This document shows, in pieces, positions 24,730 through 59,900 of a stretch of 64,000 nucleotides of DNA. Below the pieces are notes generated by a model, which was not told the DNA's origin, did not search any database, and saw only the letters and a program-made list of their open reading frames with translations. Each line of letters begins with the position of its first letter. Position 1 is the first letter of the stretch. The position numbers were made by a program, and so were the translations under genes. The stretch comes from an uncultured Chlorobiaceae bacterium (lineage in GTDB: Bacteria; Bacteroidota; Chlorobiia; Chlorobiales; Chlorobiaceae), in NCBI GenBank assembly GCA_903822595.1, contig CAIJPS010000014.1:1-64000 (forward strand), in the 5' to 3' direction.

Positions 24730-25011
24730 TCAAGAGTCGCCATAATGACCACGAGCTGAGATAACGAAGACCGATAGAGTGTTTTCACTGATTTCGTAGA
24801 CAATCCGGTGTTGCTTGTTTACTCTTCTTGACCAGCATCCAGCCAGATTACCTCGCAACGGTTCGGCTTTACCGGTACCTGTCTCAGGATGAAGAGCCAA
24901 CTCCTGAAAAATTCGATCAATTTTTCGAAGAATGGATTTGTCGCCAAGTTTTTGCCAATGCAGGAGGTCTTCCTTTGCCTCTTCAGCGATTATTACCGAA
25001 TACTGTCCCAT
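24730..25011 (-). CDS. Txe/YoeB-type mRNA interferase toxin
   Basis: 93 residues with the RelE-superfamily YoeB pattern: KEDLLHWQKLGDKSILRKIDRIFQEL, PLRGNLAGCWSRRVNKQHRIVYEI and a C-terminal SARGHYGD. The family cuts mRNA at the ribosome. It overlaps the antitoxin gene by 19 bases, so the two are co-translated. Confidence 0.9.
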   Translation of the reverse strand: MGQYSVIIAEEAKEDLLHWQKLGDKSILRKIDRIFQELALHPETGTGKAEPLRGNLAGCWSRRVNKQHRIVYEISENTLSVFVISARGHYGDS

Positions 25012-25250
25012 ATATTATTGGGATCAGTTATTTTTGTGACTCTTCCAGCCTTGATATCCTCTTTGCCTCGCTCAATGGCTTCGATGACCTTGGGGTTAGC
25101 GAAATAGTTGTCAGTCTCGCTTCTTTTTTTTGCGGATAATGCCTCCGGCTTGTTTTTTTTCTTTAAAAATTCCGCAAAATCAAGCACTTCACGAAGCACG
25201 GGCTCCGGCAGTTCTTTGACGGTACGATATATTTTTTCTGCGGTTGTCAT
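24993..25250 (-). CDS. DUF2281-type antitoxin
   Basis: 85 residues. MTTAEKIYRTVKELPEPVLREVLDFAEFLKKK is the DUF2281 N-terminal domain, followed by a disordered, charged tail (IERGKEDIKAGRVTKITDPNNIWDSIR) of the sort that wraps a RelE-fold toxin. It neutralises the YoeB-type toxin encoded downstream and probably represses the operon. Confidence 0.85.
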   Translation of the reverse strand: MTTAEKIYRTVKELPEPVLREVLDFAEFLKKKNKPEALSAKKRSETDNYFANPKVIEAIERGKEDIKAGRVTKITDPNNIWDSIR

Positions 25251-25641: not shown

Positions 25642-26973
25642 ATGCTCAATGTCCTCATTGTTGATGATGAAATTAATATCCGCAAGACACTTTCGGTTTT
25701 TATGGAATCGCGCGGCTATAGTGTCAAAGCGGTAAGCAGCTCCCGTGATGCATTTGCGGAGGCTGAGTTGCGGGTTTTTGACCTTGCCTTTGTCGATTTG
25801 CGTTTAGGAACCGAAAACGGTCTTGATCTGGTGCAGTCGCTCCAGGATGCCTGTCCATGGATCAAAGTTGTTGTTATCACTGCTTATGCCTCTATCGATA
25901 CGGCTGTTGAAGCCATGAAGAGGGGCGCAGCAGACTATATTCCAAAGCCATTTACACCTGATCAGCTTGAGCTGGTTATCAAGCGTCTTTCCGCAGTGTG
26001 CGGTATGGAGCAGCGCATTGCTTCGTTGCAGGAGGATCTCAGCCGCATGCATCCGGAAGTAACGTTCAATTCCCGTTATCCTGCCATGCAGCGGGCTGTC
26101 GAACTGGCCCGAAAAGTAGCCTCTTCTGAAGCTGTTGTGCTGTTACGGGGTCCGAGTGGTACGGGAAAAACGGTTCTTGCCCGAGCAATTCATAACTGGA
26201 GCCGCAGGGCAGAAAAACCATTTGGGGTGATTTCATGCCCGTCATTAAGTCAGGAGCTTCTTGAAAGTGAGCTTTTCGGTCATGTCAAAGGCTCATTTAC
26301 CGGGGCGGTCAGGGATAATCCGGGAAGGGTATCCTCCTGCGAAGGGGGCTCACTGTTTCTTGATGAAATCGGAGACCTTCCCCTTGCAATACAGCCCAAA
26401 TTTCTTCGTTTTCTTCAGGATCGGGAGTATGAGCGGATCGGTGATTATCAGACACGCAAAGCGGATGTACGGATCATTGCTGCAACCAATATGGATCTTG
26501 AGACGGCGGTCAGGGATGGGCGTTTTCGTGAAGACCTTTTGTACCGGCTGAATGTTATCCAGATTGACTTGCCGCCCCTTGCGGGCAGACCGGATGATGT
26601 TGAGCAGCTTGCAGGGAACATGCTGAAGTTTTTTGCTTCCCAGAACCATAAAAACCTTGATGGATTTATGGAGAGTGCCCTTCTTGCACTCAGGACGTAT
26701 TCCTGGCCGGGTAATGTCCGGGAGTTGCGCAATGTTGTTGAGCGTGCAGTGATTCTGAGCAAAGCAGATCGAATCGGTGTGGAACTTCTGCCCGAACAGA
26801 TTTTTTCAAAAGCGCATCCTGTGCGCATTGGAGATCCCTTGACTCTTGATGTGATTGAAGAAAACCATATCCGTCGTATTCTTGCGTCTTCAAAATCCCT
26901 TCAGGAAGCTGCCGATCTTCTTGGTATCGACCAGGCCACCCTCTGGAGAAAACGGAAACAATACCGGATTTAA
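25642..26973 (+). CDS. Sigma-54-dependent response regulator (NtrC/AlgB type)
   Basis: 443 residues. The receiver domain (1-120) has the acidic pair near the N-terminus and the phospho-acceptor Asp in FVDLRLG. The AAA+ domain (about 140-375) has Walker A GPSGTGKT, the sigma-54 contact loop GSFTGA (in place of the usual GAFTGA), Walker B GGSLFLDEIGDL and the arginine-finger region. The C-terminal Fis-type helix-turn-helix reads SLQEAADLLGIDQATLWRKRK. It should activate -24/-12 promoters; a good candidate lies at 29302 in front of the nearby sensor kinase and kdp genes. Confidence 0.92.
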   Translation: MLNVLIVDDEINIRKTLSVFMESRGYSVKAVSSSRDAFAEAELRVFDLAFVDLRLGTENGLDLVQSLQDACPWIKVVVITAYASIDTAVEAMKRGAADYIPKPFTPDQLELVIKRLSAVCGMEQRIASLQEDLSRMHPEVTFNSRYPAMQRAVELARKVASSEAVVLLRGPSGTGKTVLARAIHNWSRRAEKPFGVISCPSLSQELLESELFGHVKGSFTGAVRDNPGRVSSCEGGSLFLDEIGDLPLAIQPKFLRFLQDREYERIGDYQTRKADVRIIAATNMDLETAVRDGRFREDLLYRLNVIQIDLPPLAGRPDDVEQLAGNMLKFFASQNHKNLDGFMESALLALRTYSWPGNVRELRNVVERAVILSKADRIGVELLPEQIFSKAHPVRIGDPLTLDVIEENHIRRILASSKSLQEAADLLGIDQATLWRKRKQYRI

Positions 26974-27167
26974 TTGTCAATACCTCCTTGCAAAATTCAA
27001 TGAGTGCGCTTTTCGACCCTTGTGTTTTGCACGATATCCTTTTTCTCACTTTCCCTATGTTGGTGATTTTAAGGCAGGTTGCAACCGTTTTGTTGCTGCA
27101 CCTGTTTTGATCCGGACGTAAAATGAGGCAGCCTCATCCGGGTATTAATTATTTCGGATTGTTAACT

Positions 27168-29162
27168 ATGGCAGTGAATAACGTACTCAGGCAGATAAAA
27201 ACGTTTTTTCTTGGGGGCGCGAGGGATTTTCGGGATCAAAATATTTTTCACAAGCTGGCACTCTCAGCCTTTCTTGCATGGGTTGGACTTGGTTCAGACG
27301 GTCTCTCCTCCTCCTGTTATGGCCCTCCCGAAGCGTTCAAGGCTCTTCAAGGACATCCTACCCTTGGGATTTTTGTTGCTATTGGAACAGGAATTACCAT
27401 TCTCATTATTGCTACCAGTTATTCGCATATCATCGAGCTGTTCCCTCATGGCGGCGGCGGATACCTTGTTGCCAGCAAATTGCTTTCTCCCAAAATGGGG
27501 GTTATTTCAGGCAGTGCGCTTCTTATCGATTATGTGCTTACCATTACGATATCGATTGCCAGTGGCGCAGATGCGATTTTCAGCTTTCTCCCTATTGGAT
27601 TCATAGGTTATAAACTGTGGTTTGCTGTTTTCGGGGTTACTGTTTTACTGATTCTGAACCTTAGGGGTATCAAAGAGGCTGTGATGCCTCTTGTTCCGGT
27701 TTTTCTTCTGTTTGTCGTGACCCACTTGATTGTCATAGTCTATGCGGTGTTTACCCATATGATGGACTTTGGTGCGGTTTATCATGCGACCGGTCGTGAG
27801 CTCACCAGTTCATTTCATACTCTGGGCATTTTCGGAGTGATCTTTCTTGTTTTGAAAGCATACAGTCTTGGTGCTGGTACTTTCACTGGTATTGAAGCGG
27901 TCAGTAACGGCCTTCCTGTCCTTCGGGACCCGAAAGTCGAGACGGCAAAAAAAACCATGAAATACATGGCCATCTCTCTTTCTGTGACAGTCATGGGTCT
28001 CATGTTGGCCTATATTCTTTTTGATGTGCATGATTCGCCCGGCAAAACCTTGAATGCCATTTTGTTTGAGAGTGTAACGTCATCCTGGGGCGGGTATTCG
28101 GGTGTTGCGTTTGTCTGGGTAACGCTGTTTTCGGAAGCAGTTCTGCTCTTTATTGCCGCACAGACCGGCTTTCTTGACGGACCGAGGGTGCTGGCTAATA
28201 TGGCGCTCGACAAGTGGCTGCCCACGCGCTTTGCCATGCTGAGCGACAGGCTGGTGACGGAGAAGGGAATTCTTGTCATGGGCTTCGCATCACTTGTTAT
28301 GATGCTGGCATCAAATGGATCGGTTGATTTTCTGATTGTTCTTTACAGTATCAATGTCTTTATAACGTTTTCTCTCTCCCAGCTTGGTATGGTGAGGCAC
28401 TGGTGGGCAAAAAGAGGATCAGAAAAACAGTGGGCTCGAAAACTGGTTATCAATGGCATCGGCCTTACTCTGACGACTTTTATTTTGATTTCTGTATTGA
28501 TTCTCAAGTTTAATGAGGGTGGCTGGGTTACCATACTGATTACTGGCTTACTGGTTATTGGTGCTTTTTTTATCAAGGATCACTACAACAAGACCTATGT
28601 CACCCTTAAGCGGCTCGATGTTATTGTTGAAGCTGCGGTGCTGACCGGTTCTGATGTGCACGACAAGGAGAGCGAACACTCTACTCCGGTTCCGGCTTTT
28701 GATACCAAAGCTAAAACGGCAGCTATTCTGGTGAACGGTTTTAACGGCTTGGGTCTTCATACCCTGTTCAGCGTATTCCGTCTTTTCGGCAATAGTTATA
28801 AAAATTATGTTTTTGTTGAGATTGGTTCGATTGATGCCGGAAACTTCAAAGGGGCTGATGAAATCGATAACCTTGGCAGCTTTGTGCGCAACGAGACCTC
28901 CAAGTATGTTGAATACATGACGGAGCATGGGTACTATTCTGAGGCGTACTTTTCTCTTGGAACCGATGTGGTTGATGAGGTGAACAAACTTGTTCCAGCC
29001 ATCAGGGAAAAATATCCGGATATTGTGTTTTTTGGCGGGCAGCTTGTTTTTACAAAAGAGTCTCTCATGGATCGCTGGCTGCACAATTATACGGTTTTTG
29101 CCATACAGCGGAACCTCTATGTGTATGGCATTCCTTTTGTAATCTTGCCAATCAAGGTTTGA
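27168..29162 (+). CDS. APC-family potassium transporter, KimA/YdaO-like
   Basis: 664 residues from the MAVNNVLRQIK start; an ATG 15 codons upstream (27123) is equally possible because neither has a clear ribosome site. About 12 membrane segments fill residues 30-500. WVGLGSDGLSSSCYGPPEAF and SYSHIIELFPHGGGGYLVASKLL near the N-terminus are characteristic of the KimA-like high-affinity K+ importer group rather than amino-acid permeases. A soluble C-terminal domain of about 150 residues follows. Lying between a two-component regulator gene and its probable kinase, next to kdp, supports a K+ role. No frameshift or lost motif is seen. Confidence 0.8.
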   Translation: MAVNNVLRQIKTFFLGGARDFRDQNIFHKLALSAFLAWVGLGSDGLSSSCYGPPEAFKALQGHPTLGIFVAIGTGITILIIATSYSHIIELFPHGGGGYLVASKLLSPKMGVISGSALLIDYVLTITISIASGADAIFSFLPIGFIGYKLWFAVFGVTVLLILNLRGIKEAVMPLVPVFLLFVVTHLIVIVYAVFTHMMDFGAVYHATGRELTSSFHTLGIFGVIFLVLKAYSLGAGTFTGIEAVSNGLPVLRDPKVETAKKTMKYMAISLSVTVMGLMLAYILFDVHDSPGKTLNAILFESVTSSWGGYSGVAFVWVTLFSEAVLLFIAAQTGFLDGPRVLANMALDKWLPTRFAMLSDRLVTEKGILVMGFASLVMMLASNGSVDFLIVLYSINVFITFSLSQLGMVRHWWAKRGSEKQWARKLVINGIGLTLTTFILISVLILKFNEGGWVTILITGLLVIGAFFIKDHYNKTYVTLKRLDVIVEAAVLTGSDVHDKESEHSTPVPAFDTKAKTAAILVNGFNGLGLHTLFSVFRLFGNSYKNYVFVEIGSIDAGNFKGADEIDNLGSFVRNETSKYVEYMTEHGYYSEAYFSLGTDVVDEVNKLVPAIREKYPDIVFFGGQLVFTKESLMDRWLHNYTVFAIQRNLYVYGIPFVILPIKV

Positions 29163-29173: not shown

Positions 29174-29211
29174 ATTTTTCAATCCTCTTTTTCTGAAGAG
29201 GATTGAAAAAT
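29174..29211. terminator. Strong hairpin after the KimA-like gene
   Basis: Perfect 16-bp stem ATTTTTCAATCCTCTT / AAGAGGATTGAAAAAT with a six-base loop, 12 bases after the transporter stop. There is no separate T-run after it, but the outer A/T pairs could serve as one. It probably separates the transporter transcript from the sigma-54-driven genes. Confidence 0.65.
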
Positions 29212-29301
29212 GCAATCACTTTTTTGCTTCTTCATTGATTTTTACAAGGTTGCGCTGTCCGGCATCCCTGTTTATCCTTGATTATTCCGGGGTTGTTGCC
29301 G

Positions 29302-29317
29302 TGGTACGGTATTTGCC
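29302..29317 (+). promoter_or_regulatory. Candidate sigma-54 (-24/-12) promoter
   Basis: TGGTAC, five bases, TTGCC: it matches the consensus TGGCAC-N5-TTGCA with the invariant GG and GC exactly ten bases apart. It lies 26 bases before the kinase ATG and is followed by a strong AGGAGG ribosome site. The adjacent NtrC-type regulator is the obvious activator. Confidence 0.75.
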
Positions 29318-29342: not shown

Positions 29343-31169
29343 ATGGTTGGTATACGACAAAAACTTTTGCTGGGGTTTGGTGGCCTGCTTCTTATTGTTG
29401 CAGCCATGGGTGTTCTCACCATCAGGCAGATCGATTTACTTGGCGGAGCTATCGATGTCATGCTCAAGCAGAACTATCGCAGCGTTGTTGCCTGCCAGAA
29501 TATGACAGCATCTCTTGAGCGTATTGACAGCGGAGTATTGTTTACCTTTGCAGGTCATTACCAGGAAGGTGTGAACGCTATTCGGCAGCATGAAGAGCAT
29601 TTTTATAATGCGCTGCAAGTTGAACTCGGCAATATCACCTTGCTTGGTGAAGATCAGAAAGCCTTGCGGATTCGGAAGCTGTTTCTGGAGTCTTCAAGAG
29701 TCCTTGAGCAGGTTACTGACTCGTCTGCACCTCTCTCCCTGAGGCAGAAACGATATTTTTCTTCCCTGTTACCGATTTTTCAGGAAATCAAGCAGCTATC
29801 CGGTGAGGTTCTTGAAATGAACCAATCCAATATGCATCATGCAAATAATAATGCCCGCATTATGGCTGCATCGGCACACAATACTATGCTTGTTACGATT
29901 TTTGCCAGTGCCGTTATTGCCCTTTTGTTCAGCTATCAGTCACATCGATGGATTCTCCTGCCGATTAAAAAGCTTATTGCTTCGGCAGAAGAGATCAGAA
30001 AGGGAAATCTTGATCTTGTGCTTGATACCACTTCCAATGATGAAATCGGACGGCTTTCAAGGTCATTTAACGATATGGCCTCTACTCTGCGCAAAATGCG
30101 TAAAACTGATACGGATACTCTGCTCCGGACGCGAAGTGCAACACAGGAGGTGTTCAAGGTACTTCCCTCACCCATAGCGGTGCTCGATCAGAACGGTGAA
30201 GTTGAAGTAGCAACTGAAACCGCAGAAAGCTATTTCGGTCTGAAACCGGGAGTTAATGTTCGCGATCTTGGGCACGAGTGGCTGAGGAAATTGCTTCAGA
30301 AAGCTTATCGCCAGGATTATGCAACTGAAAGCGGTGAGGGAAATGGCTTTATTCAGCATTTTGTCGGGAATCACGAATACTTTTTTCAGCCTCAGGTAGT
30401 TCTTGTTCCAGCCGGAACAGCGCTGATTCTCAGGGATGTAACGCAGGTTTTCGAACAGCTCGAACTGAAGCGTAGCGTTATTGCAACCGTTTCCCATCAA
30501 CTGAAGACTCCTTTAACCTCTTTGAGGATGTCGATCCATCTGTTGCTTGAGGAGCGTGTCGGCAACCTGAACGAACAACAGTCAGATCTGCTCTTTGCCG
30601 CGCGGGATGAAAGTGAACGACTGGTGCATATCCTTGATGATCTTCTGGACCTCAACCGGATAGAATCCGGAAAAGCACATCTGAATGTTCATCCGGTATC
30701 TCTTTCTCGTATCGGTAGCGAAGGAATAGAACTTTTTGCTCTGCATGCCCGAGATCATGGAGTAACTCTTGTCAATACCATAGCGGAAGGGCTTCCGGAA
30801 GTCATGGCAGATCCTGAACGTATCCGCCATGTGTTTGCTAATCTCTTGTCCAATGCCTTGCGGTTTACTCCCCCTGGTGGCACCGTTACGTTAAGTGCCG
30901 TTAAAGAGCAGGATAACATCCGGTTTTCCATTGAAGATACCGGAAAAGGAATTTCAGAAGAACATCTCGCACATCTTTTTGAACAATTTTACCGGGTTCC
31001 CGGACAACCGGCAGAAAGCGGTATCGGGCTCGGACTCTCCATTGTCAAGGAGATCATAGACGCACATGGCGGAAGCGTTGGAGCCGAAAGCGATTCGGGA
31101 AGTGGTTCGGTTTTTTGGTTTACCATACCTATACAAAAGAATACCGGTGAAAATCAAACCACTATATAA
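29343..31169 (+). CDS. Membrane sensor histidine kinase (HAMP-PAS-HisKA-HATPase)
   Basis: 608 residues: TM1 (about 8-25), a periplasmic helical domain of about 145 residues, TM2 (about 178-198), HAMP (200-252), a PAS-like segment (275-365), HisKA with the phospho-acceptor His in ATVSHQLKTPLTSLRMS (about residue 386), and HATPase with NLLSNALRFTPP, DTGKGI and GIGLGLSIVKEI. The layout resembles KinB, the partner of the NtrC-type regulator AlgB. It is probably the partner of the response regulator at 25642. First gene of the sigma-54-driven kdp group. Confidence 0.9.
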   Translation: MVGIRQKLLLGFGGLLLIVAAMGVLTIRQIDLLGGAIDVMLKQNYRSVVACQNMTASLERIDSGVLFTFAGHYQEGVNAIRQHEEHFYNALQVELGNITLLGEDQKALRIRKLFLESSRVLEQVTDSSAPLSLRQKRYFSSLLPIFQEIKQLSGEVLEMNQSNMHHANNNARIMAASAHNTMLVTIFASAVIALLFSYQSHRWILLPIKKLIASAEEIRKGNLDLVLDTTSNDEIGRLSRSFNDMASTLRKMRKTDTDTLLRTRSATQEVFKVLPSPIAVLDQNGEVEVATETAESYFGLKPGVNVRDLGHEWLRKLLQKAYRQDYATESGEGNGFIQHFVGNHEYFFQPQVVLVPAGTALILRDVTQVFEQLELKRSVIATVSHQLKTPLTSLRMSIHLLLEERVGNLNEQQSDLLFAARDESERLVHILDDLLDLNRIESGKAHLNVHPVSLSRIGSEGIELFALHARDHGVTLVNTIAEGLPEVMADPERIRHVFANLLSNALRFTPPGGTVTLSAVKEQDNIRFSIEDTGKGISEEHLAHLFEQFYRVPGQPAESGIGLGLSIVKEIIDAHGGSVGAESDSGSGSVFWFTIPIQKNTGENQTTI

Positions 31170-31378: not shown

Positions 31379-33049
31379 ATGATACTGCTGTTTTTATTAG
31401 TGCTTCTTGGTCCAGCACTCTTGTCGTGGCCTCTCGGTCATGCAATGGCACTTTTGATAGACCCTGCTCAGACATCGAACTATGGTCGCTGGACTTCAGG
31501 GATTTTCAGCAAAACAGGAGGGGTTGCTGCCGTTGAAGAGCAGGATTGGAAAGGATATCTTTTTTCCATGCTGATATGCAATGTCGTCATGTTTGTTTTT
31601 GTGGCCATTGTTCTTGCCCTGCTGCAATGGATGCCGCTCAATCCCGACGGAAAGGGGCCGCTTGAGGCAAGCCTTATCTTTAATACGGTCTTCTCGTTTG
31701 TAACGAACACCAACCTTCAGCATTACTCTGGAGAGGTGTCCATGAGCTATTTTTCCCAGCTTTTTGGTTTGATGTGGCTGCAGTTTGTTTCGGCTGCGAC
31801 AGGGATTGCCTGCCTTGCTGCTCTTGCCAGAGCGCTGGGCGGGAGAGAGACGGTCGGCAACTTTTACTCCGATCTGATGCGGACCACTCTTTTTATTTTG
31901 CTGCCGCTTGCTCTGCTTGTTGCCCTTCTTCTTCTTGCTGGAGGAGTTCCGATGACCTTGAATGGTGCCGTAATTGCCCATACTCTTGAACATGCAACAC
32001 AGACCATAGCCCGAGGCCCGGTAGCAGCCATGGAGGCCATCAAACAGCTCGGAACAAACGGCGGAGTTTTTTTCGGGCCGAATTCAACCCATCCTTTCGA
32101 GAACCCATCTTTCTTTACCAATATCATAGAGTGTACCAGTATTGTTTTGATTCCAATGGGCGCGGTATGGATGTTCGGGCGCATAACGGGCCGAATACGC
32201 GATGCAGCGGTTATTTTTACGGTTATGATGGTGCTGCTTCTGTTGAAAGGAGCTGCAGCCGTATGGCTTGAAGGTGATCCAACAGCCGCATTTTCAGGAC
32301 TTCCTGTCGAGCTGTCATCGAATCTCGAAGGCAAGGAGCTTCACTTTGGGTCTGGTGCCGGTGCTCTTTGGGCGGCAGTGACGACAGCTACCAGCAACGG
32401 TTCGGTCAACTGCATGCACGATAGCCTTAATCCGCTGACCGGACTTGTCCCTCTTGCCGGCATGTGGATGAATGTCGTTTTTGGCGGGGTTGGCGTTGGT
32501 CTTATCAACATGTTCATTTTTATCATCGTCGGTGTATTTATCTGTGGCATGATGGTTGGTCGTACCCCGGAATATTTTGGGCGTAAAGTTGAAACCCGGG
32601 AAATGACGCTTGCACTTCTTGCGCTACTCGTTCATCCTGCACTGATTCTCGGCGGTACGGCACTTTTTGCGGCTACTCCCGCAGGTGCTTCAACCGTACT
32701 CAACACCGGGGTTCACGGTTTTACAGAAATTCTTTACGAGTTTACATCGGCAGCGGCTAACAACGGTTCAGGCTTCGAAGGGCTTGGAGATAACACGGTT
32801 CCCTGGAATGTTGCAACCGGAATCGTTATGCTGCTTGCCCGATATATTCCAATCATTCTGCCTCTTGCCATTGCCGGTTCTCTCGCTGCGAAAAAACCGG
32901 TTCCGGAAACTGCCGGTACTCTCCGGACCGATACCTTGCTTTTTACCGTCATTATTTTCGGCAGCGTTGTTTTTATCGGAGCACTGCTTTTTCTGCCGGT
33001 AGCTGTGCTTGGTCCTGTAGCTGATCATCTTGCAGCATTAAGGTATTGA
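31379..33049 (+). CDS. kdpA: K+-transporting ATPase subunit A
   Basis: 556 residues, about ten membrane helices, the channel-like subunit that binds K+. The selectivity-filter segments are present: FNTVFSFVTNTNLQHYSGE, LGTNGGVFFGPNSTHPFENP, ATSNGSVNCMHDSLNPLTG and FTSAAANNGSGFEGL. The reading frame is complete. No ribosome site is obvious before the ATG, so it probably depends on coupling to kdpF. Its partner subunit KdpB is truncated (next entry). Confidence 0.95.
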   Translation: MILLFLLVLLGPALLSWPLGHAMALLIDPAQTSNYGRWTSGIFSKTGGVAAVEEQDWKGYLFSMLICNVVMFVFVAIVLALLQWMPLNPDGKGPLEASLIFNTVFSFVTNTNLQHYSGEVSMSYFSQLFGLMWLQFVSAATGIACLAALARALGGRETVGNFYSDLMRTTLFILLPLALLVALLLLAGGVPMTLNGAVIAHTLEHATQTIARGPVAAMEAIKQLGTNGGVFFGPNSTHPFENPSFFTNIIECTSIVLIPMGAVWMFGRITGRIRDAAVIFTVMMVLLLLKGAAAVWLEGDPTAAFSGLPVELSSNLEGKELHFGSGAGALWAAVTTATSNGSVNCMHDSLNPLTGLVPLAGMWMNVVFGGVGVGLINMFIFIIVGVFICGMMVGRTPEYFGRKVETREMTLALLALLVHPALILGGTALFAATPAGASTVLNTGVHGFTEILYEFTSAAANNGSGFEGLGDNTVPWNVATGIVMLLARYIPIILPLAIAGSLAAKKPVPETAGTLRTDTLLFTVIIFGSVVFIGALLFLPVAVLGPVADHLAALRY

Positions 33050-34851
33050 GTCAGAATGAAATATCTGAAAGCATTAATCATAACATCATGATGAACAGTA
33101 ATTCCTTTCCGAGCGCCTATGATCAGGCAAAATCCGTGCGCCGTCAGGCGAGAAAAGCATCTATTTTTGAAAAAAAACTGGTGCAGAATGCTCTCAGCCG
33201 ATCAATAATGATGCTTGATCCGAGGGCAATGGTAAAAAATCCGGTCATGTTTGTCACTGAAGCTGGAGCTTTTCTGACAACGCTTATCGCGGTTTCAAAT
33301 GCACTGACCGGAGCCGGGCACCAGCTCTATACCGTTGCAGTCATGCTTATCCTGTGGCTTACGGTGATGTTTTCCAATTTTGCTGAAGCTTTGGCGGAAG
33401 CTCGTGGCAAAGCACAGACTGACACTCTCAAGAGAACACGACAGAGCACGGTCGCCCGAAGAGTAATAAATGGCAAGGAAGAGTCCGTAAGTTCTGACAA
33501 TCTGCAGGAGGGCGATCGGGTTATTGTTTTGACAGGCGAAATTATTCCGGGAGATGGAGAGGTAGTCGAGGGTGCCGCCATGGTCGACGAATCGGCTATT
33601 ACCGGTGAATCAGCGCCGGTTGTGAGAGAGGCTGGCGGCGACCGATCGGGTGTTGTTGGCGGAACAAGAGTCATCTCTGATCATATTGTCGTGCGTATTT
33701 CTGTTTCAGCCGGGCACTCTTTTCTTGATAAAATGATCGCTCTTGTTGAAGGGGCCGTTCGGCAGAAAACTCCGAATGAGCTGGCGCTGACCGTTACTCT
33801 CGCCGGTCTTACCCTTGCATTTTTGATGGTAACCGGTACGCTCTGGCCTATCGGCAGATATTTTGGGATAATGCTGCCTGTACCGACGCTGGTTGCTCTT
33901 CTTGTCTGTCTTATTCCAACAACTATCGGAGCCCTTCTCTCCGCCATAGGGCTGGCCGGTATGGACCGGGCACTTTCAGCCAATGTGCTGGCAAAGAGCG
34001 GCAAAGCGGTTGAACTTGCAGGCGATATCGATACCCTTCTGCTCGACAAGACCGGCACGATCACCATAGGTAACCGTCAGGCAACGGACTATTTCCCGCT
34101 GCCGGGTATCCAGAGGGAGCGCCTTGCTTTGGTCGCAATGAAGGCATCATTCGGTGATCAGACCCCTGAAGGAAAATCAATTATTGCCCTTGCTGAAGAG
34201 ATGCTGGGCATAAAGGCTCCTGCCGAAGTTGATGGAAACGTAGTGCCCTTTTCTGCGCAATCCCGAATGAGCGGCATTGATCTTCCTGATGGTCAGAGTC
34301 TGCGCAAGGGTGCGCCGGATACCCTCATCAGTTTTTGTGAAAAACAGGGTGGGAGTGTTTCGGAAAAGCTGCAGGGGCTGGTTGACGACGTTGCTCGCAA
34401 AGGCATGACACCAATTGTCGTTGCGGAAGGAGGTGAACTTCTTGGCAGTGAACTGATTGCCCAGCAGTTTACCCGACCGGAATATTTCTGGTCTCGTCCT
34501 TCGGCAGTGTCATGGAACGCCGCAGGAGCAGGAGGCAGCAATCTGTCGCCCGCATCGATGGCGGCACGCCAGAGAACGGAAAAACTGCTTGCTGAACTGG
34601 CACTGAAAAAAGGTGAAAAGGTACCTGCTGATCTTGTTACAGCTTCAGGTAGCGGTCTTGACCCCCACATTTCACTTGCAGCAGCCAAATTTCAGGTGCC
34701 GAGAGTTGCTTTTGCGAGGGGCCTCTCCATTGACCAGGTGCTGAGGGTTCTTGATAAACCGGCAAATGGAAAATCTATCCTCCCATTTACCAGTGAGTTT
34801 CTGGTCAATGTGCTGCAACTCAACAGATCGCTTGACCGACTGAAAAAATAA
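33046..34851 (+). CDS. kdpB: In-frame fusion of truncated KdpB and truncated KdpC
   Basis: 601 residues in one open frame. Residues 1 to about 467 are KdpB: actuator TGES (AITGESAPV), KLIPTTIGALLSAIGLAGMDR-like segment, phosphorylation site DKTGTITIGNRQ and most of the nucleotide-binding domain, ending VVAEGGELLG. From about 468 (SELIAQQFTRPEYFWSRPSA, SGGSNL-like AGGSNLSP, VTASGSGLDPHIS) the sequence is KdpC to its normal end. Missing are the last ~220 residues of KdpB (GDGxNDAPA hinge motif and the final membrane helices) and the first ~50 of KdpC including its membrane anchor. The pump should be inactive. TTG start chosen (AAGG ribosome site, TTGA overlap with kdpA); ATG at 33088 is the alternative. 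Confidence 0.92.
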   Translation: MSQNEISESINHNIMMNSNSFPSAYDQAKSVRRQARKASIFEKKLVQNALSRSIMMLDPRAMVKNPVMFVTEAGAFLTTLIAVSNALTGAGHQLYTVAVMLILWLTVMFSNFAEALAEARGKAQTDTLKRTRQSTVARRVINGKEESVSSDNLQEGDRVIVLTGEIIPGDGEVVEGAAMVDESAITGESAPVVREAGGDRSGVVGGTRVISDHIVVRISVSAGHSFLDKMIALVEGAVRQKTPNELALTVTLAGLTLAFLMVTGTLWPIGRYFGIMLPVPTLVALLVCLIPTTIGALLSAIGLAGMDRALSANVLAKSGKAVELAGDIDTLLLDKTGTITIGNRQATDYFPLPGIQRERLALVAMKASFGDQTPEGKSIIALAEEMLGIKAPAEVDGNVVPFSAQSRMSGIDLPDGQSLRKGAPDTLISFCEKQGGSVSEKLQGLVDDVARKGMTPIVVAEGGELLGSELIAQQFTRPEYFWSRPSAVSWNAAGAGGSNLSPASMAARQRTEKLLAELALKKGEKVPADLVTASGSGLDPHISLAAAKFQVPRVAFARGLSIDQVLRVLDKPANGKSILPFTSEFLVNVLQLNRSLDRLKK

Positions 34852-34863: not shown

Positions 34864-36564
34864 ATGGTATCAAGGGCAGAGAGAGCTATGGATAGCAACA
34901 ACAGAGCCGACAGTTTTTTGCGTCTCATCCAGCGGTCGCAACGGGGTAAACTCAAGATTTATGTCGGGTACTGCGCTGGTGTGGGGAAAACCTGGCAGAT
35001 GCTGCAGGAAGCAAGGCGCCTTAAGGAGAGTGGCATCGACGTGGTTGTCGGCCTTGTAGAAACCCATAAAAGAAAAGAGACAGAAGCCCTCCTTTCCGGT
35101 CTCGACATCATGGCGCGTAAAATCCTGGTTTATCGCGGAATCGAAATTACAGAAATGGATATCGATGCGATTCTTCAGCGCCGTCCATTTGTTGTGCTTG
35201 TCGATGAACTTGCGCATACAAACATTCCCGGAAGCAGGAATTCCAAGCGTTATGAAGATGTTGAAGAAATTCTTGCTGCCGGTATTCATGTGATTTCGAC
35301 CATGAACATCCAGCATATCGAGAGCCTTTATGAAACAGTAGAACATGCAACTGGTGTGAAGGTCAAGGAAAGGGTGCCCGATCGTATGTTGTCGTTGGCC
35401 GATCAGCTTGTCAATGTCGATATTACCACCGATGATCTGCGGCAGCGTCTGAGAGAAGGAAAGGTCTATCTTCCCGGTCATTCGGGAGCTGCACTATCCA
35501 ACTTTTTCCAACCGGAAAACCTTGAGCAGCTTCGTGAACTTACTCTCAGGGAACTTGCGGCACAGCTTGATTCGAGGCGTCGTAACCAGTTTCATGATGA
35601 ATCTGTTTCGAATCCCGACCAGCTTATGGTTTGTCTCAGTTCAAAAACCCGGAATTGTGAAGCAATCCTGCGCTACGCATCTCGTATAGCAGGACGACTG
35701 AACAGAAACTGGTATGCAGTCTATGTTCAAACCCTTTCCGACAATCCAGCCAATATCGATGCGAGGGTACAACGGTTACTCTCCAATACCCTTGCCCTTG
35801 CCCAGCAACTCGGAGCTACCGTATTTACCTACAAGGGAGATGATGTGGTGAAGACCATTCTGCAGTTTGCAAGGGAGTATCGTGTCGGACATATCATTAT
35901 CGGTAATTCAGGACGAAAACTTTTATTTTGGCAGCGCCTTATGGGTCGGCAAACCGTTGTTGAGCAATTAATCAGTGAATGCCGGGGCATCAGCGTGATT
36001 GTCCTTGATACAAGAGAAGAGGATGCTGTGAAAGAACCAAAAACGCCTGCGCAACTTTTTTCCGGTATTAAGGAGACTTTTTCGACATCAAAGCAGTTGC
36101 AGAATGAATGGAAGGAACCGATTCGGAATGCAAGGGTCCTTTTATGGGAGCGTGTTCTGGAAAAGGAGGATGCTTTTCGTGAGCTTCTTCACGAATGTTG
36201 CTTGGCAAATCCTGGAATTGATGAGGCAAGCGCATTCCAGAGTCTCCTTGAACGGGAAAAACAGGGGGGTACATTTGTCGGGGATGAAATTGCTATTCCT
36301 CATGCAAGACTCCATAATCTGAACAAACCGGTTGTTGCTATTGGTGTCAACAAAATTGGTATTTATGATCGGGAATCAAGCAAAACCGCCAGGATAATCT
36401 TCCTGATGCTCTCTCCACTGTCAGATCCGAACAGTCATATCAGGCTTCTTGGAGCTATCAGTAAAATGGCTGCTGACAGCCAGTGGCGCAGTATGATGCT
36501 TCGAGCCGGGAACACAAAAGAGATTCTCCGGATTATAAGGAGCCGCTTGATTTTGTCTCGTTGA
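34864..36564 (+). CDS. KdpD-type sensor without kinase, fused to USP and PTS EIIA domains
   Basis: 566 residues. Residues ~20-235 are the cytoplasmic KdpD domain: Walker A GYCAGVGKTWQML, then GIDVVVGLVETHKRKETEALL, Walker B FVVLVDELAHTN and HVISTMNIQHIESL. Residues ~250-385 form a universal-stress-type domain (HIIIGNSGRKLLF). Residues ~420-560 are a type-2 PTS EIIA (PtsN-like) domain with its phospho-His in VGDEIAIPHARLHN (His480) and the tail HIRLLGAISKM. The four membrane helices, GAF, HisKA and HATPase of full KdpD are absent. It is therefore a K+/PTS signal integrator, not a kinase. ATG at 34888 is an alternative start. Confidence 0.88.
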   Translation: MVSRAERAMDSNNRADSFLRLIQRSQRGKLKIYVGYCAGVGKTWQMLQEARRLKESGIDVVVGLVETHKRKETEALLSGLDIMARKILVYRGIEITEMDIDAILQRRPFVVLVDELAHTNIPGSRNSKRYEDVEEILAAGIHVISTMNIQHIESLYETVEHATGVKVKERVPDRMLSLADQLVNVDITTDDLRQRLREGKVYLPGHSGAALSNFFQPENLEQLRELTLRELAAQLDSRRRNQFHDESVSNPDQLMVCLSSKTRNCEAILRYASRIAGRLNRNWYAVYVQTLSDNPANIDARVQRLLSNTLALAQQLGATVFTYKGDDVVKTILQFAREYRVGHIIIGNSGRKLLFWQRLMGRQTVVEQLISECRGISVIVLDTREEDAVKEPKTPAQLFSGIKETFSTSKQLQNEWKEPIRNARVLLWERVLEKEDAFRELLHECCLANPGIDEASAFQSLLEREKQGGTFVGDEIAIPHARLHNLNKPVVAIGVNKIGIYDRESSKTARIIFLMLSPLSDPNSHIRLLGAISKMAADSQWRSMMLRAGNTKEILRIIRSRLILSR

Positions 36565-42831: not shown

Positions 42832-43164
42832 TTATTTTCCCTGCTCAGCAATGTAAGCGACTGCATTGCCGATTTCAGCGGTGGTCAGCTTCGAATTTCC
42901 ACCTTTTGCCGGCATGGCTCCAACTTTTCCGGAAAATCCATTGTCGGCATGAGAGATCAGCACGTCAAGTCCCTGAGCGATACGGGGTGCCCAAGCAGCC
43001 TTGTCGCCCAGTTTCGGTGCACCAAGAAGTCCGGTTTTGTGGCATGCAGAACAACTGGCATCGAAAAGGGCCTTGCCTGCGGCGAGGTCATGTGCTGAAG
43101 CGACAGAAGAACAGATTGAACAGACGAAGAGAGCACAAATTGCGGTTGAAATAATACGAGACAT
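42832..43164 (-). CDS. Periplasmic c-type cytochrome, c555-like (copy A)
   Basis: 110 residues with signal peptide (cleavage near ASA-HD, residue 24), one heme site CSACHKTG and the Met ligand in KVGAMPAKGG, ending AYIAEQGK. Size and spacing fit the small soluble cytochromes c555 of green sulfur bacteria, which carry electrons to the reaction centre. It is closely similar along its whole length to the gene at 43360, including the signal peptide and upstream region, so the two arose by tandem duplication. Confidence 0.9.
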   Translation of the reverse strand: MSRIISTAICALFVCSICSSVASAHDLAAGKALFDASCSACHKTGLLGAPKLGDKAAWAPRIAQGLDVLISHADNGFSGKVGAMPAKGGNSKLTTAEIGNAVAYIAEQGK

Positions 43165-43215
43165 AGATTACTCCTTTTAATAGGTTTGGTATGATGGGGT
43201 GGAAGTTGATGTGCT

Positions 43216-43260
43216 AAAGGAAACACAATTGTTAATACGAATTAAATGTAATCAATCCAA
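43216..43260. repeat. Duplicated upstream region, copy A (with 43787-43838)
   Basis: AACACAATTGTTAATACGA and TTAATGTAAT-like blocks match 43787-43838 in the same order (AACACAATCCTCTTAATACA, TTAATGTAATGAATCC). The segment precedes each of the two related cytochrome genes by about 55-65 bases, so the duplication took the promoter region as well. Confidence 0.65.
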
Positions 43261-43359
43261 ATGGATCAAGAAAAAATTTGCCGTTATCACTATTCCATGG
43301 CAAAAGAGAGTGGGAGCCGATGTTTTCAGCCCCCGCTCGAAGAAAAGATGTGCGCGTCC

Positions 43360-43722
43360 TTATTTTGCGCTTTTGACAAGATAAGCAACTGCGTTGCCGA
43401 TTTCAGCAGTAGTCAGCTTGGCATTACCACCCTTTGCTGGCATTGTGCCTTTTTTGCCGGTGAATCCTTTGTCGGCATGGCTGACAAGTACCTCAACTCC
43501 CTGCTTGATGCGGGGTGCCCAATCCACTTTGTCGCCAAGTTTAGGCGCTCCCATAAGGCCTGTTTTGTGGCATGATGTACAACTGGCATCAAAAGTAGCT
43601 TTACCTGCAGCGGCGTTGTATGCTGGCGCTGGAGCCGGTTTGCCTTTAGCTGCGGATGCTTCGGTAGAACAAATTGAACAGACAAAGAGCGCACAAAGTG
43701 CGGTTGAAATAAAGCGAGACAT
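43360..43722 (-). CDS. Periplasmic c-type cytochrome, c555-like (copy B)
   Basis: 120 residues from MSRFISTALCALFVC; the frame runs 25 codons further without signal-peptide logic. One heme site CTSCHKTG, Met ligand in KKGTMPAKGG. It differs from copy A mainly by an Ala/Pro/Lys insertion after the signal peptide (AKGKPAPAPAYNAAAG) that makes the N-terminus basic and flexible. Likely an electron carrier with a different partner or docking mode from copy A. Confidence 0.9.
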   Translation of the reverse strand: MSRFISTALCALFVCSICSTEASAAKGKPAPAPAYNAAAGKATFDASCTSCHKTGLMGAPKLGDKVDWAPRIKQGVEVLVSHADKGFTGKKGTMPAKGGNAKLTTAEIGNAVAYLVKSAK

Positions 43723-43878
43723 AGGCGTTACTCCTCTTTTTGTGGGTTTGGTATGATGTGCTCTGGTATTTGTTGCTGAGTGTTGTAGAAAACACAATCC
43801 TCTTAATACAAATTTAATGTAATGAATCCAAATTTATCAGGCAATATCTACTCTGATTATGGGATTATGGTTTTAGGG

Positions 43879-43915
43879 AAAACCAACAGGAGCTGAGCGC
43901 ATCAGTTCCTGTTGG
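43879..43915 (-). terminator. Terminator of the diheme cytochrome gene
   Basis: CCAACAGGA-G-CTGA, loop GCGCA, TCAG-T-TCCTGTTGG: a 14-bp stem with one G-T pair, followed on the minus strand by TTTTCCC. It lies 25 bases after the stop at 43940. Confidence 0.8.
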
Positions 43916-43939
43916 TGAAAAAAGATTGAGGGGTGGTGG

Positions 43940-44674
43940 TTACTTTGATTTGTCGGCCATATAACTGACGATGCTCGTTATCTCTTCTCCGCTAAGTGTC
44001 GCTTTTCCCCCTTTGGCTGGCATCATACCAACTTTTCCCTTGAATCCATTGGTGGCATGGCTGACAAGCACGGCTTTCCCTTGCGCGATACGTGGTGCCC
44101 ATGCAGCTTTGTCTCCAGGTTTTGGAGCGCCCATCATACCCGATTCGTGACATGAGGCACAGGTGGCGTCATAGAGTGCTTTGCCGTCAGCCAGTGCCGG
44201 GGCCGGAGCTGTTGCTGCCGCAGGGGCTTCAGCTTTTGCTGTTGCTCCCTTTGATTTGTCAGCCATGAAGGCAACAGCATTGGTTACCTCTTCGTCGGTC
44301 AAACTGGCGTTACCACCTTTTGCTGGCATAGCGCCTACTTTGCCTGTGAAGCCCGCAATTGACTTTTTCGCCATTGCGTCTACACCCTGAGCAATACGTG
44401 GGGCCCATGCGGTAAGGTCTCCTGGTTTTGGTGCACCCATCATCCCTGCTTCGTGACATGCGCCACAGTTGGCATCATAGACGGTTTTTCCTGCGGCCAA
44501 TTTCGGATCTGCCGGCACGTCAGCCTTTGCTGGTGCAGCAGCGGGTGTAACAGCCGGTGCGCCATCACTCTTTGCAACAGGAAATTTAAGAGAGGCAGGT
44601 GGTTTTTCAAGGCCGCAAGCACCGAGAAAAAAGAGACCGACGGTCAAAAAAGGCAGGAACGGCTTGATGGTCAT
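43940..44674 (-). CDS. Diheme c-type cytochrome lipoprotein (two c555-like domains)
   Basis: 244 residues. Lipobox LGAC at about residue 20, an Ala/Pro linker, then two homologous heme domains: CGACHEAG with GAMPAKGG, and CASCHESG with GMMPAKGG. A second Ala/Pro-rich linker (about 145-165) joins them. Each domain resembles the single-heme cytochromes encoded next door. A membrane-anchored two-heme relay between the quinol-oxidising complex and soluble c555 is plausible. Confidence 0.88.
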   Translation of the reverse strand: MTIKPFLPFLTVGLFFLGACGLEKPPASLKFPVAKSDGAPAVTPAAAPAKADVPADPKLAAGKTVYDANCGACHEAGMMGAPKPGDLTAWAPRIAQGVDAMAKKSIAGFTGKVGAMPAKGGNASLTDEEVTNAVAFMADKSKGATAKAEAPAAATAPAPALADGKALYDATCASCHESGMMGAPKPGDKAAWAPRIAQGKAVLVSHATNGFKGKVGMMPAKGGKATLSGEEITSIVSYMADKSK

Positions 44675-56963: not shown

Positions 56964-59900
56964 ATGAAGAAGAATGAGCCATCCCGGTCCTTGAAAACAA
57001 AAAAGCATGAAGGAGTACCCCTGAAAGCAGCGGAGAATTTTTTTCCTGTTATTGGTATCGGCGCTTCTGCCGGAGGGCTGGAGGCGCTGGAGATTTTTCT
57101 TAAAAATGTTCCCGACCCGTGCGGTGTCGCCTTCGTGATTGTTCAGCATCTTGACCCGACACACAAGGGTATGATGGTGGGGTTGCTTCAGCGGGTTACC
57201 ACCATACCGGTCGTCGAGGTAAGTGATCGCCTGATAATTGAGCCGGACCATGTCTATGTCATTCCGCCAAACAAGGACATGTTACTGCTCCACGGAATCT
57301 TGCATTTGCTTGATCCTGTAGAGCCAAGGGGGTTGCGTCTCCCCATTGATTTATTTTTCCGCTCGCTTGCTGATGACCTGCAACATCGAAGTGTCGGTGT
57401 TATTCTTTCTGGCATGGGTTCAGACGGAAGCCATGGCTTGCTTGCTATCAAAGAGAAAGGCGGTGGTGTTTTTGTGCAGGATCCCGTATCAGCCAAGTTT
57501 GACGGCATGCCGCGCAGCGCCATTGGTGCCGGTCATGTTGACCTCATAGCCCCTGTCGAGGAACTTCCCGTCAAAATCCTTGCCTATCTCAGGCACTTTC
57601 ACCCGTTATTAAAACAGGATCTTCTACTTGAAGAGAGATCACAGAGTGGTTTGGAAAAAGTGATCATTCTTTTGCGTCTTCAGACCGGTCAGGATTTTTC
57701 GCTCTATAAAAAAAGTACTATCTATCGCCGTATTGAGCGACGTATGGGTATTCACCAGATTGAAAAAATCGCTGACTATGTCCGCTTTCTGCAGGAGAAT
57801 CCCAATGAGATCGATCTACTCTTCAAAGAGCTTCTGATAGGAGTGACAAGTTTTTTCCGCGATCCGGTTGTGTGGGAAGCTTTGCAACTCAGAGCAATCC
57901 CGTTACTTCTGGCGGCCCGGCCAGCCGGTGGTGTTCTGCGGGCTTGGGTAGTCGGTTGTTCTACCGGTGAGGAAGCCTATTCCCTTGCAATCGTTTTCAG
58001 GGAGGCTATCGAAGCGGTCAAGCCTTCAAGAAATTTCAGATTGCAGATATTTGCAACTGACCTCGATAAAGATGCTATCGACAAGGCCCGTGCAGGATGC
58101 TATCCCTTGCACAGTGCAACTGACGTCTCTCCGGAACGGTTGCGACGCTTCTTTGTGCGCGATGATCATGGCTACAGGATATCGAGGGAGATTCGTGAAA
58201 CGGTGGTCTTTGCACCTCAGAATGTGATCATGGATCCTCCATTCACCAAACTCGACATTCTGGTTTGCCGGAATCTGCTGATCTATATGGAGCCAGAGCT
58301 GCAGAAAAAGCTTTTTCCGCTTTTTCATTACAGCCTTAATCCTGGAGGCCTTCTTTTTCTGGGGAGTGCCGAGAGTGTAAGTTCATTTACCACTCTTTTT
58401 AAGCCGCTTGACGGTAAAACACGGCTTTTCAGCAAGCTTCAACGGGTTCGTTCAGAGTCAATTGCTCTTCCCTTTTCGTTCGCTCAAGCCCTGCCCGCTC
58501 TTCAGGATGTCGCGTTCGATCAACCAAAATCAAGAACATCTGCAATCAATCTGCAGACCATGACCGAACAGCTCCTTCTTGAGCATTATACTCCTGCATC
58601 GGTGCTGACCAACGACAAAGGTGATATCATCTATATCAGTGGTCATACGGGTAAGTACCTTGAGCCGGCGGCAGGAAAGGCCAACTGGAATATTTTTGCC
58701 ATGGCTCGCGAAGAGCTCCGCTATGAACTGAATATCGCTTTCGGGTGTGTACTTCGTCAAAAGGGATTGGTTACCAAAAGAGGGTTGCATGTCAGTTCTC
58801 ACGGATCAACACAGGTGCTTAATCTGACGATTGAACTTCTTGAAAAGCCTGATGCGTTGCGGGATATGGTATTGATTGTTTTTACCGATGTTGAATGCGT
58901 TGCGGTTGGAACCATACAGGAACAGGTTTCCCCGGAAGTCACCGGCGGAAAGCGGCAGGCATTGCTTGAGCAGGAACTGAGTCAGGCCCGCGATGAGATT
59001 CTGAGCATTCGTGAAGAGATGCAGACTTCACAGGAGGAGCTCAAGTCAACCAATGAAGAGATGCTGTCGGCCAATGAAGAGCTGCAGAGCACCAATGAGG
59101 AGCTGACCACCTCCAAGGAGGAGATGCAGTCCATGAACGAGGAGTTGCAGACGGTTAATCACGAACTCCAGTCGAAGGTGAGTGACCTGTCGCAGGCAAA
59201 CAACGATATGAAAAACCTGCTGAACAGCACTGATATCGCTACCCTTTTTCTTGATGATGCGCTCAATATCCGCCGCTTCACCACACGGACCGCAACGATT
59301 ATCAAGCTGATTGCAAGCGATGTTGGCCGACCGATAACCGATATTGTGACTGATTTGCACTATCCTGCGCTTCTTGACGACGCAAGGGAGGTTCTGCATA
59401 CGCTTGTGTTCAGTGAAAAAGAGGTTACAGCAAGTGATGGTCGCTGGTTTAAAGTAAAGATCATGCCATACCGCACCCAGGAAAACCGGATTGTCGGGTT
59501 GGTGATCACCTTCAGCGATATCAGTGTTGCAAAAAAGCTCGAAGAGAGTCTGCGGGAGAGTGAAGAGCGTTTCCGGGCAGCAATTGAAAGTTCAGGTATT
59601 CTCGTTGCTGCTGTTGACAGAGAACTCCGTTATATCTGGTTTTACGATCCTCGTCATGAGTTCTATGCTTCTGGTTTGATCGGACTGCGTGATGATGAGC
59701 TGCATGATATGCAGAACGCTCTTGAATTAATGGAGGTTAAGCGACAAGTCTTTGCGACAGGGGAGAGTGTAGAGAGGGATTTGACGGTTAAATTCTTGAA
59801 CGGCAGCTCCCGCGTTTATAAACTTATCGCCAAAGCGCTGAGAGGTGCCAGTGGTGAAATATTTGGTGTGATAACGGTTGCAGCCGATAATGCCGCCCGC

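What the first reader, a model, noticed from the sequence alone, without database searches (positions are those of the whole stretch)
34864..36564. KdpD sensor domain fused to USP and a PTS EIIA(Ntr)-like domain
The protein has the KdpD ATP-binding domain, a universal-stress domain and a PtsN-like EIIA domain with its His (480), but no membrane or kinase part. In E. coli the unphosphorylated PtsN protein binds KdpD and raises kdp expression. Here the two partners are one chain, a natural fusion that supports that interaction and suggests a kinase-free adaptor acting on the separate kinase at 29343.
Basis: partly seen in the sequence, partly recalled or inferred. Interest (0 to 1): 0.75.

Follow-up and report, generated by a model that had tools for sequence, protein, structure and literature searches.

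The report
PTS-linked KdpD regulator of potassium uptake
A green sulfur bacterium carries a protein that joins the nucleotide-binding half of a potassium sensor to a phosphate-receiving switch of the sugar/nitrogen signalling system; relatives in many bacterial groups sit beside potassium-uptake genes, and it probably ties potassium import to the cell's energy state.

Summary
In detail: 34864-36564 encodes KdpD domain + USP + EIIA (PF00359) with His480, without membrane or histidine-kinase part. It is not a one-off. The three-domain protein ("KDE") occurs in 76 of 80 relatives fetched, from about a dozen phyla by record title; His480 is invariant in 77 of 77. It usually ends a conserved module: NtrC-type regulator (RR) - histidine kinase (HK) - kdpABC - KDE. 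The genome has EI, HPr and a separate PtsN, so a phosphodonor exists. No diadenylate cyclase was found in 86 Chlorobiaceae genomes, so c-di-AMP, the known input of short KdpDs, seems unavailable there, leaving the EIIA as the obvious input. An RR operator learned from other phyla marks, in this window, the promoters of KimA (a second K+ importer) and of HK-kdp-KDE. Several relatives lost Kdp but keep RR-KimA-HK-KDE under purifying selection. Here kdpB and kdpC are joined by a 926-nt in-frame deletion, so the pump is probably dead. Phosphorylation and the HK contact are inferred.

The parts
25642..26973 (+). NtrC-type response regulator (RR): receiver, sigma-54 AAA+, Fis HTH
   Evidence: Pfam PF00072, PF00158, PF02954; gene order kept in relatives
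26986..27002 (.). predicted RR operator 1 upstream of KimA, CCTTGCAAAATTCAATG
   Evidence: score 21.4 with a matrix trained on non-Chlorobiaceae kdp promoters only; best hit in 64 kb
27018..27034 (.). predicted RR operator 2 upstream of KimA, 32 bp from operator 1
   Evidence: score 11.5 in window, 14-20 in relatives at the same spacing in most
27123..29162 (+). KimA-type K+ importer
   Evidence: PDB 6s3k KimA, E 2.7e-66
29201..29217 (.). predicted RR operator upstream of HK, GATTGAAAAATGCAATC
   Evidence: score 14.4
29233..29249 (.). predicted RR operator upstream of HK, CATTGATTTTTACAAGG
   Evidence: score 15.5
29302..29317 (+). predicted sigma-54 promoter TGGTACGGTATTTGCC, 41 nt before the HK ATG
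   Evidence: same position in most kdp-bearing loci
29343..31169 (+). histidine kinase: periplasmic sensor, HAMP, HisKA, HATPase; no KdpD/USP/GAF
31379..33049 (+). kdpA, intact
   Evidence: PF03814 E 9.8e-210
33046..34851 (+). kdpB-kdpC single ORF made by a 926-nt deletion; lacks the KdpB C-terminal part and the KdpC N-terminus
34864..36564 (+). KDE: KdpD domain (26-234), USP (about 250-380), linker, EIIA (424-559); likelier start 34888
36301..36303 (+). codon of EIIA His480
   Evidence: invariant in 77 of 77

Best explanation
KDE is a soluble three-part regulator of potassium uptake. (1) Its KdpD domain is an atypical serine kinase module which, where KdpB exists, marks the pump for shut-down (shown for E. 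coli and D. geothermalis KdpD, inferred here). (2) Its USP domain is a nucleotide/c-di-AMP site in lineages that make c-di-AMP, probably idle or re-used in Chlorobiaceae (inferred). (3) Its EIIA domain takes phosphate at His480 from PEP through EI and HPr (donors present; transfer inferred). The phosphorylation state sets how KDE acts on the HK encoded beside it and on its own serine kinase. HK then phosphorylates the RR, which binds CCTTGCAAAATGCAAGG-type operators: upstream of a sigma-54 promoter it drives HK-kdpABC-KDE, and at a second promoter it controls KimA (predicted from sequence). By analogy with E. coli and S. fredii, unphosphorylated EIIA should favour HK activation (inferred; P. 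putida is reported with the opposite sign). The module thus ties K+ import to PEP/PTS state. In Chlorobiaceae that lost Kdp it persists for KimA.
For: Architecture and His480; serine-kinase residues kept: Walker A G-x5-GKT, D114/E115, R195; donors EI, HPr, PtsN in the genome, EI in 20 of 20 KDE genomes tested; HK+RR beside KDE in 45 of 50 EIIA-bearing loci with at least 7.8 kb upstream; KDE-HK co-occurrence 43/2/8/33 in 86 genomes; no diadenylate cyclase in 86 of 86 Chlorobiaceae while 49 of 57 other genomes tested have one; operators and sigma-54 site; two KDE copies, one per K+ transporter module, in five genomes; purifying selection on all domains without Kdp; three EIIA-only ORFs, sister to a KimA-linked KDE clade, keep the active-site His.
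Against: No experiment on any KDE was found. Many KimA-HK-RR modules have no KDE or EIIA nearby (13 loci), so the HK can do without it. EIIA is the least conserved domain and can be absent (4 of 80 relatives). In one KimA-linked clade the aromatic residue for adenine is Leu (7 of 7), so serine kinase activity may be lost there. The three EIIA-only genes do not lie beside K+ genes. KimA's own promoter does not look sigma-54-like, so the sign of RR action there is open.
Confidence: 0.55

Rival explanations
1. KDE is only a short KdpD/Usp serine kinase of KdpB; the EIIA gates that kinase and nothing touches the HK.
For: PMC11018627 shows short KdpDs acting on KdpB; Walker A, D/E and R195 are kept in 88 of 88 kdp-linked rows; TGES target motif in 71 of 77 KdpB rows.
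Against: KDE persists under purifying selection in genomes without KdpB and stays linked to HK there.
Confidence: 0.2
2. KDE is a c-di-AMP sensor of the D. geothermalis type and the EIIA is a passive or structural add-on.
For: USP fold matches 7ji4; C-x-S...N...Y part of the published c-di-AMP motif is largely kept; 49 of 57 non-Chlorobiaceae genomes tested have a diadenylate cyclase.
Against: 0 of 86 Chlorobiaceae have a diadenylate cyclase; the second Ser of the motif is Lys/Arg/His in most rows; the two Fibrobacteria without the cyclase have CLDARGPE; His480 is invariant. On the other side: L078 has a cyclase and yet a changed Ser, and L053, L054, L057, L061, L074, L075 lack a detected cyclase with the motif core kept (draft genomes).
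Confidence: 0.15
3. The EIIA acts directly on a transporter (KimA or Kdp), as E. coli PtsN does on TrkA and YcgO, and not on a kinase.
For: Precedents in PMC13104625 (passages); KDE next to KimA in Kdp-less genomes.
Against: KDE follows HK with or without either transporter; co-occurrence with HK is strong.
Confidence: 0.15
4. In this window KDE is a leftover of a decaying kdp operon with no present function.
For: kdpBC is broken here; close relatives lack Kdp.
Against: Pairwise dN/dS between window and L005/L006 is 0.07-0.16 in the three domains; reading frame and all key residues intact.
Confidence: 0.08

Closest known systems
Short KdpD/Usp serine kinase (Deinococcus geothermalis DgKdpD; NCBIfam NF038185 'KdpD-like non-kinase potassium sensor')
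   Same: KdpD + USP, no TM, no GAF, no histidine kinase; Walker A/B and Arg kept
   Different: C-terminal EIIA with invariant His; occurs where no diadenylate cyclase is found; scores 346.6 against NF038185 cut-off 550
E. coli KdpD/KdpE with PtsN (EIIANtr)
   Same: Same parts list: KdpD domain, USP, EIIA, histidine kinase, regulator, Kdp pump
   Different: EIIA fused to the input half; HK on its own chain and of PhoR/WalK/PnpS type; NtrC/sigma-54 regulator instead of the OmpR-type KdpE (class of KdpE recalled)
Desulfovibrio vulgaris DVU3334-3339 (PMC3333781, passages read)
   Same: RR regulates its own kdp operon; HK split into DVU3335 (kinase) and DVU3336 (K+ sensor domain + UspA)
   Different: No EIIA domain is mentioned for DVU3336; no KimA; its sequence was not compared here
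PtsN / EIIA fructose-mannitol superfamily
   Same: Fold (TM by target about 0.8 to PtsN) and active-site His
   Different: Covalently tied to KdpD-USP; not assignable to PtsN by NCBIfam cut-off

Membership tests
Short KdpD/Usp atypical serine kinase | KdpD domain with G-x5-GKT and Walker B Asp/Glu | tested here: met
   G35-x5-G41K42T43, D114/E115; GKT and Asp kept in all rows with that part, Glu in all but one (Asp in L027)
Short KdpD/Usp atypical serine kinase | Adenine pair W39/R190 (E. coli numbering) | tested here: inconclusive
   R195 kept in all rows with that part; W44 here, Tyr/Trp/Phe in most rows, Leu in 7 of 14 KimA-linked rows
Short KdpD/Usp atypical serine kinase | Phosphorylates KdpB Ser of TGES | not testable with these tools
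   TGES present in window KdpB and 71 of 77 KdpB rows; the other 6 were not resolved by the pattern; activity not assayed
Short KdpD/Usp atypical serine kinase | c-di-AMP as input | tested here: not met
   no DAC domain in own genome or in 86 of 86 family genomes; a cyclase of another family is not excluded. Possible in other phyla: 49 of 57 genomes tested have a DAC
NF038185 KdpD_non_kinase | curated score cut-off 550 | tested here: not met
   346.6 bits
KdpD sensor histidine kinase | TM, GAF and DHp/CA parts in the chain | tested here: not met
   no HisKA, HATPase or GAF match; 566 aa
PTS EIIA (PF00359) | profile above gathering score and active His | tested here: met
   76.4 bits against 27; His480 in 77 of 77
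PTS EIIA (PF00359) | PEP donors EI and HPr in the genome | tested here: met
PtsN (TIGR01419 equivalog) | curated score cut-off 138.7 | tested here: not met
   51.9 bits
KimA (gene 27123-29162) | sequence relation to solved K+ importer KimA | tested here: met
   6s3k E 2.7e-66 over 45-499; transport not testable

The most novel reading that the evidence does not exclude
KDE is a PEP-gated switch that controls two different potassium importers through one shared regulon. Its EIIA is the main input in a whole family that lacks c-di-AMP; its serine-kinase domain has acquired a substrate other than KdpB in Kdp-less species; and the RR turns Kdp on from sigma-54 while acting with the opposite sign on KimA, whose operators lie at a sigma-70-like promoter. 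Chlorobiaceae show the steps of re-use: Kdp with KDE, KimA with KDE, altered kinase site, then EIIA alone.
Probability: 0.3. Interest if true: 0.8.

Novelty: new variant of a known kind. Interest (0 to 1): 0.6.

Why it matters
PtsN control of potassium uptake is known mostly from separate proteins in Proteobacteria, with conflicting signs (unphosphorylated form active in E. coli and rhizobia, phosphorylated in P. putida). A natural fusion kept across about a dozen phyla, by record title, says the PTS-potassium link is old and selected, and gives a one-chain protein on which the sign and target can be tested. It also offers an answer to how short KdpD proteins can be controlled in bacteria without c-di-AMP. 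The shared operator predicts a regulon joining KdpABC and KimA that can be tested directly.

Tried and rejected
Chance or artefact: rejected, since 76 of 80 relatives carry the same architecture. That set is biased: the search patterns included two peptides of the linker/EIIA region, so it gives no frequency of EIIA among short KdpDs. A sigma-54 scan of the window alone was uninformative (45 matches, 41.8 expected); only position across relatives made it meaningful. Sigma-54 control of KimA: not supported. 'KDE always needed by the HK': rejected, 13 KimA-HK(-RR) modules have no KDE/EIIA within the fetched stretch. 'Kdp-less' status was corrected for G090 (kdpBC pieces on its contig, L120) and left open for G061 (KDE fragment at a contig end); L007's genome has kdpA elsewhere. 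A strict link between a broken c-di-AMP motif and absence of the cyclase is not perfect: L078 has a cyclase and a changed Ser; six draft genomes have no detected cyclase and the motif core kept. Window hit 58105 to the operator matrix lies inside a coding gene and is taken as chance. Literature: 10 full-text searches listed no paper that I recognised as describing a KdpD-EIIA fusion; the main texts of PMC11018627 and PMC8214093 hold 'EIIA' 0 times. Supplements and subscription papers were not searchable.

Full report
THE OBSERVATION. The ORF at 34864-36564 is real and open. It holds PF02702 KdpD (26-234, E 3.5e-91) and PF00359 EIIA_2 (424-559, E 2.9e-21); PF00582 Usp is sub-threshold in this sequence but passes E 0.001 in 24 of 39 homologues, all 39 of which match KdpD and EIIA. 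An AlphaFold model from 39 sequences gives a confident EIIA (pLDDT 86-94), a fair USP and a poor KdpD domain; Foldseek finds the KdpD N-domain 2r8r (TM by target only 0.5), PtsN structures (0.75-0.80) and the c-di-AMP-bound KdpD USP 7ji4 (0.85). No HisKA or HATPase domain matches. I call the protein KDE.

HOW WIDESPREAD. A scan of 84,980 species genomes returned 80 relatives (134 found, best 80 kept). 76 reach into the EIIA; L072, L080, L081, L082 stop after the USP. Record titles name Chlorobiaceae, deltaproteobacterial groups (Syntrophaceae, Desulfobacteraceae and others), Hydrogenedentota, Aminicenantes, Acidobacteria, Verrucomicrobia, Planctomycetes/Phycisphaerales, Fibrobacteres, Riflebacteria, Dadabacteria, Krumholzibacteriia and Oligoflexus. 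His480 is His in 77 of 77 (window + 76), Walker A GKT in 76 of 76 with that part. The set is biased towards EIIA carriers because two search peptides lie in the linker/EIIA region.

NEIGHBOURHOOD. Of 50 EIIA-bearing loci with at least 7.8 kb upstream, 45 have both HK and RR in the locus, 48 have HK, 43 have kdp genes. The usual order is RR - HK - kdpA - kdpB - kdpC - KDE. The HK is a HAMP-HisKA kinase scoring best with PnpS, WalK and PhoR models and has no KdpD, USP or GAF part. A related split is in print: in D. vulgaris, RR DVU3334 regulates its own kdp operon, with DVU3335 (kinase part) and DVU3336 (K+ sensor + UspA) as separate ORFs (PMC3333781, passages read); no EIIA is mentioned there.

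SERINE KINASE, NOT KINASE-FREE. PMC11018627 (abstract, passages and section 8 read) shows that the KdpD domain is an atypical serine kinase that phosphorylates KdpB Ser162, needing Walker A, D109/E110 and W39/R190, and that a short KdpD/Usp protein is stimulated by c-di-AMP. In KDE, GKT, D114 and R195 are kept in every row that has the region, E115 in all but L027 (Asp), and position 44 is mostly aromatic. So 'no kinase part' is right for histidine kinase and probably wrong for kinase activity. That KDE phosphorylates KdpB is inferred.

THE PTS SIDE. The own genome (3.04 Mb, 109 contigs, 97.6% complete) has one EI (597 aa, L004), one HPr (L003, with the His and Ser sites visible in the sequence), and one separate PtsN-like protein (L001) besides KDE. 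EI is in 20 of 20 KDE genomes tested. EIIB/EIIC components were not searched for.

c-di-AMP. No DAC domain was found in 86 of 86 Chlorobiaceae genomes. Outside the family, 6 of 7 and 43 of 50 genomes have one. The published c-di-AMP motif (PMC8214093, passages) is partly kept: C, first S, N and Y are nearly constant, the second S is mostly K/R/H; the following G-P of other phyla is replaced in Chlorobiaceae; both Fibrobacteria rows (L077, L083), whose genomes show no DAC, read CLDARGPE. Exceptions: L078 (DAC present, S to A) and six draft genomes without a detected DAC but the motif core kept. I read this as: c-di-AMP is a likely input in most phyla, not in Chlorobiaceae, while the EIIA His is kept in both.

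PROMOTERS AND OPERATOR. A sigma-54-like site lies 41 nt before the HK ATG in the window (29302-29317). In loci ordered RR-HK-kdpA, 30 of 46 score at least 18 of 21.5, nearly all 39-46 nt before HK; several Chlorobiaceae have the same site with GC changed to GT. In KimA-HK-kdpA loci 5 of 8 score at least 18 (window included). In 19 KimA-HK-KDE rows (13 distinct loci) two score 18.3, both at -108, and none has a GG-N10-GC site at -39 to -46; decayed remnants are visible (L005, L019, L024). Upstream of the site I found a palindrome, consensus CCTTGCAAAATGCAAGG: 42 of 55 HK-kdpA promoters hold at least one TTG-N7-CAA core (71 sites), and 50 of 55 exceed the 95% point of shuffles (2.8 expected); 20 of 21 KimA upstream regions do so too (1.1 expected), while the stretches upstream of kdpA (5 of 45) and RR (5 of 44; 0 of 13) do not stand out. 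With a matrix trained on 30 non-Chlorobiaceae promoters only, the 64-kb window gives four hits of at least 12: 26986 (before KimA), 29201 and 29233 (before HK), and 58105 (inside a gene); five shuffles gave 1, 2, 0, 0, 0. KimA upstream regions show a tandem pair, mostly 32 bp apart, in 27 of 28 rows (20 of 21 distinct), followed by a conserved TTATGTTT that could be a -10 element. Among 18 further KimA genes, 13 have a site; the five without are three with no RR beside them (L160, L164, L165) and two whose RR ends about 500 bp or more away, beyond the 320 bp scanned (L146, L159). So the RR very probably controls KimA as well as the kdp operon; the sign at KimA is unknown, and overlap with a sigma-70-like promoter would allow repression.

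LOSS OF KDP, RETENTION OF KDE. Whole-genome scans find no KdpA in the genomes of L005, L006, L017, L019, L020, L024 and L077; L007's genome has it elsewhere. In the family (86 genomes), KdpB/C pieces are in 35, KDE or its EIIA in 45, KimA in 46, the HK in 51. KDE vs HK: both 43, KDE only 2, HK only 8, neither 33 (Fisher p 6.5e-14, not corrected for kinship). Five genomes carry two modules, RR-HK-kdpABC-KDE and KimA-HK-KDE (RR seen beside the second in two of the five; two are cut by a contig end, in one RR was not matched). KimA-linked KDEs arose several times (at least 6 changes on the tree); one clade of seven has Leu at the adenine position and a long stem (0.47) in KdpD-USP. Three genomes (G043, G047, G061) have 206-221-aa EIIA-only ORFs that are the sister group of that clade in the EIIA tree (99, starred), keep the IPHAR His and are under purifying selection (dN/dS 0.11-0.20 in EIIA); their neighbours are not K+ genes. 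Pairwise dN/dS in Kdp-less or Kdp-broken pairs: KdpD domain 0.07-0.15, EIIA 0.02-0.47; in Kdp-bearing pairs 0.03-0.23 and 0.07-0.33 (13 pairs each). Thus KDE is maintained without KdpB. Against a strict need: 13 KimA-HK modules, most with RR, have no KDE nearby.

THIS WINDOW. kdpB and kdpC form one ORF (33046-34851): KdpB model positions 3-440 of 675, then KdpC from position 40. Against L014 and L008 the difference is a clean 926-nt deletion. No other of the 86 family genomes showed such a joined protein. The pump should be dead; an assembly error cannot be excluded. KDE is intact, and the window's nearest KDE relatives (L005, L006) belong to Kdp-less genomes.

MECHANISM AND ITS STANDING. Shown by computation: architecture, invariant His, kept kinase residues, donors, conserved module, shared operator, sigma-54 site, retention without Kdp. 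Shown by others for relatives: serine kinase activity, c-di-AMP control of a short KdpD, PtsN binding to KdpD, to PhoR, TrkA and YcgO (PMC11018627, PMC9239096, PMC13104625, PMC8534201; passages). Inferred: phosphate transfer to His480, contact with the HK, effect on the serine kinase, sign of control.

NOVELTY. The parts and the short KdpD are known; I found no description of the KdpD-USP-EIIA protein in ten searches of the open-access library, which cannot show that none exists. I file it as a new variant of a known kind.

Noticed in passing
33046-34851: kdpB and kdpC are joined in frame by a 926-nt deletion against relatives; unique among 86 family genomes searched; real deletion or assembly error not settled.
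   Followed up: partly
L123:6308-6928(+), L124:8487-9152(+), L125:8275-8940(-): EIIA-only proteins of 206-221 aa, sister to the KimA-linked KDE clade, near a cysteine synthase-like gene in three Chlorobiaceae genomes.
   Followed up: partly
86 Chlorobiaceae genomes: No DAC (diadenylate cyclase) domain in any genome of the family searched, although KdpD-USP and KimA relatives, c-di-AMP targets elsewhere, are present.
   Followed up: yes
L146-L158 (13 loci): RR-KimA-HK or KimA-HK modules without any KDE or EIIA nearby, mostly still with the operator before KimA.
   Followed up: partly
24730-25250 (-): Small two-gene pair just upstream of the RR: a 93-aa ORF that looks RelE/YoeB-like (my reading of the sequence) and an 85-aa DUF2281/DUF2683 protein, resembling a toxin-antitoxin pair.
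   Followed up: no
42832-44674 (-): Three small c-type cytochrome-like ORFs with CxxCH stretches close together, one of them with the unit repeated (reading of the sequence).
   Followed up: no
56964-60350 (+): 1128-aa protein that looks like a CheB-CheR-PAS fusion (reading of the sequence).
   Followed up: no
L006, L007, L019, L024, upstream of RR: A tRNA 3'-end-like sequence (AGGTTCGAGTCCTGC) precedes the RR gene, perhaps an insertion point of the module.
   Followed up: no
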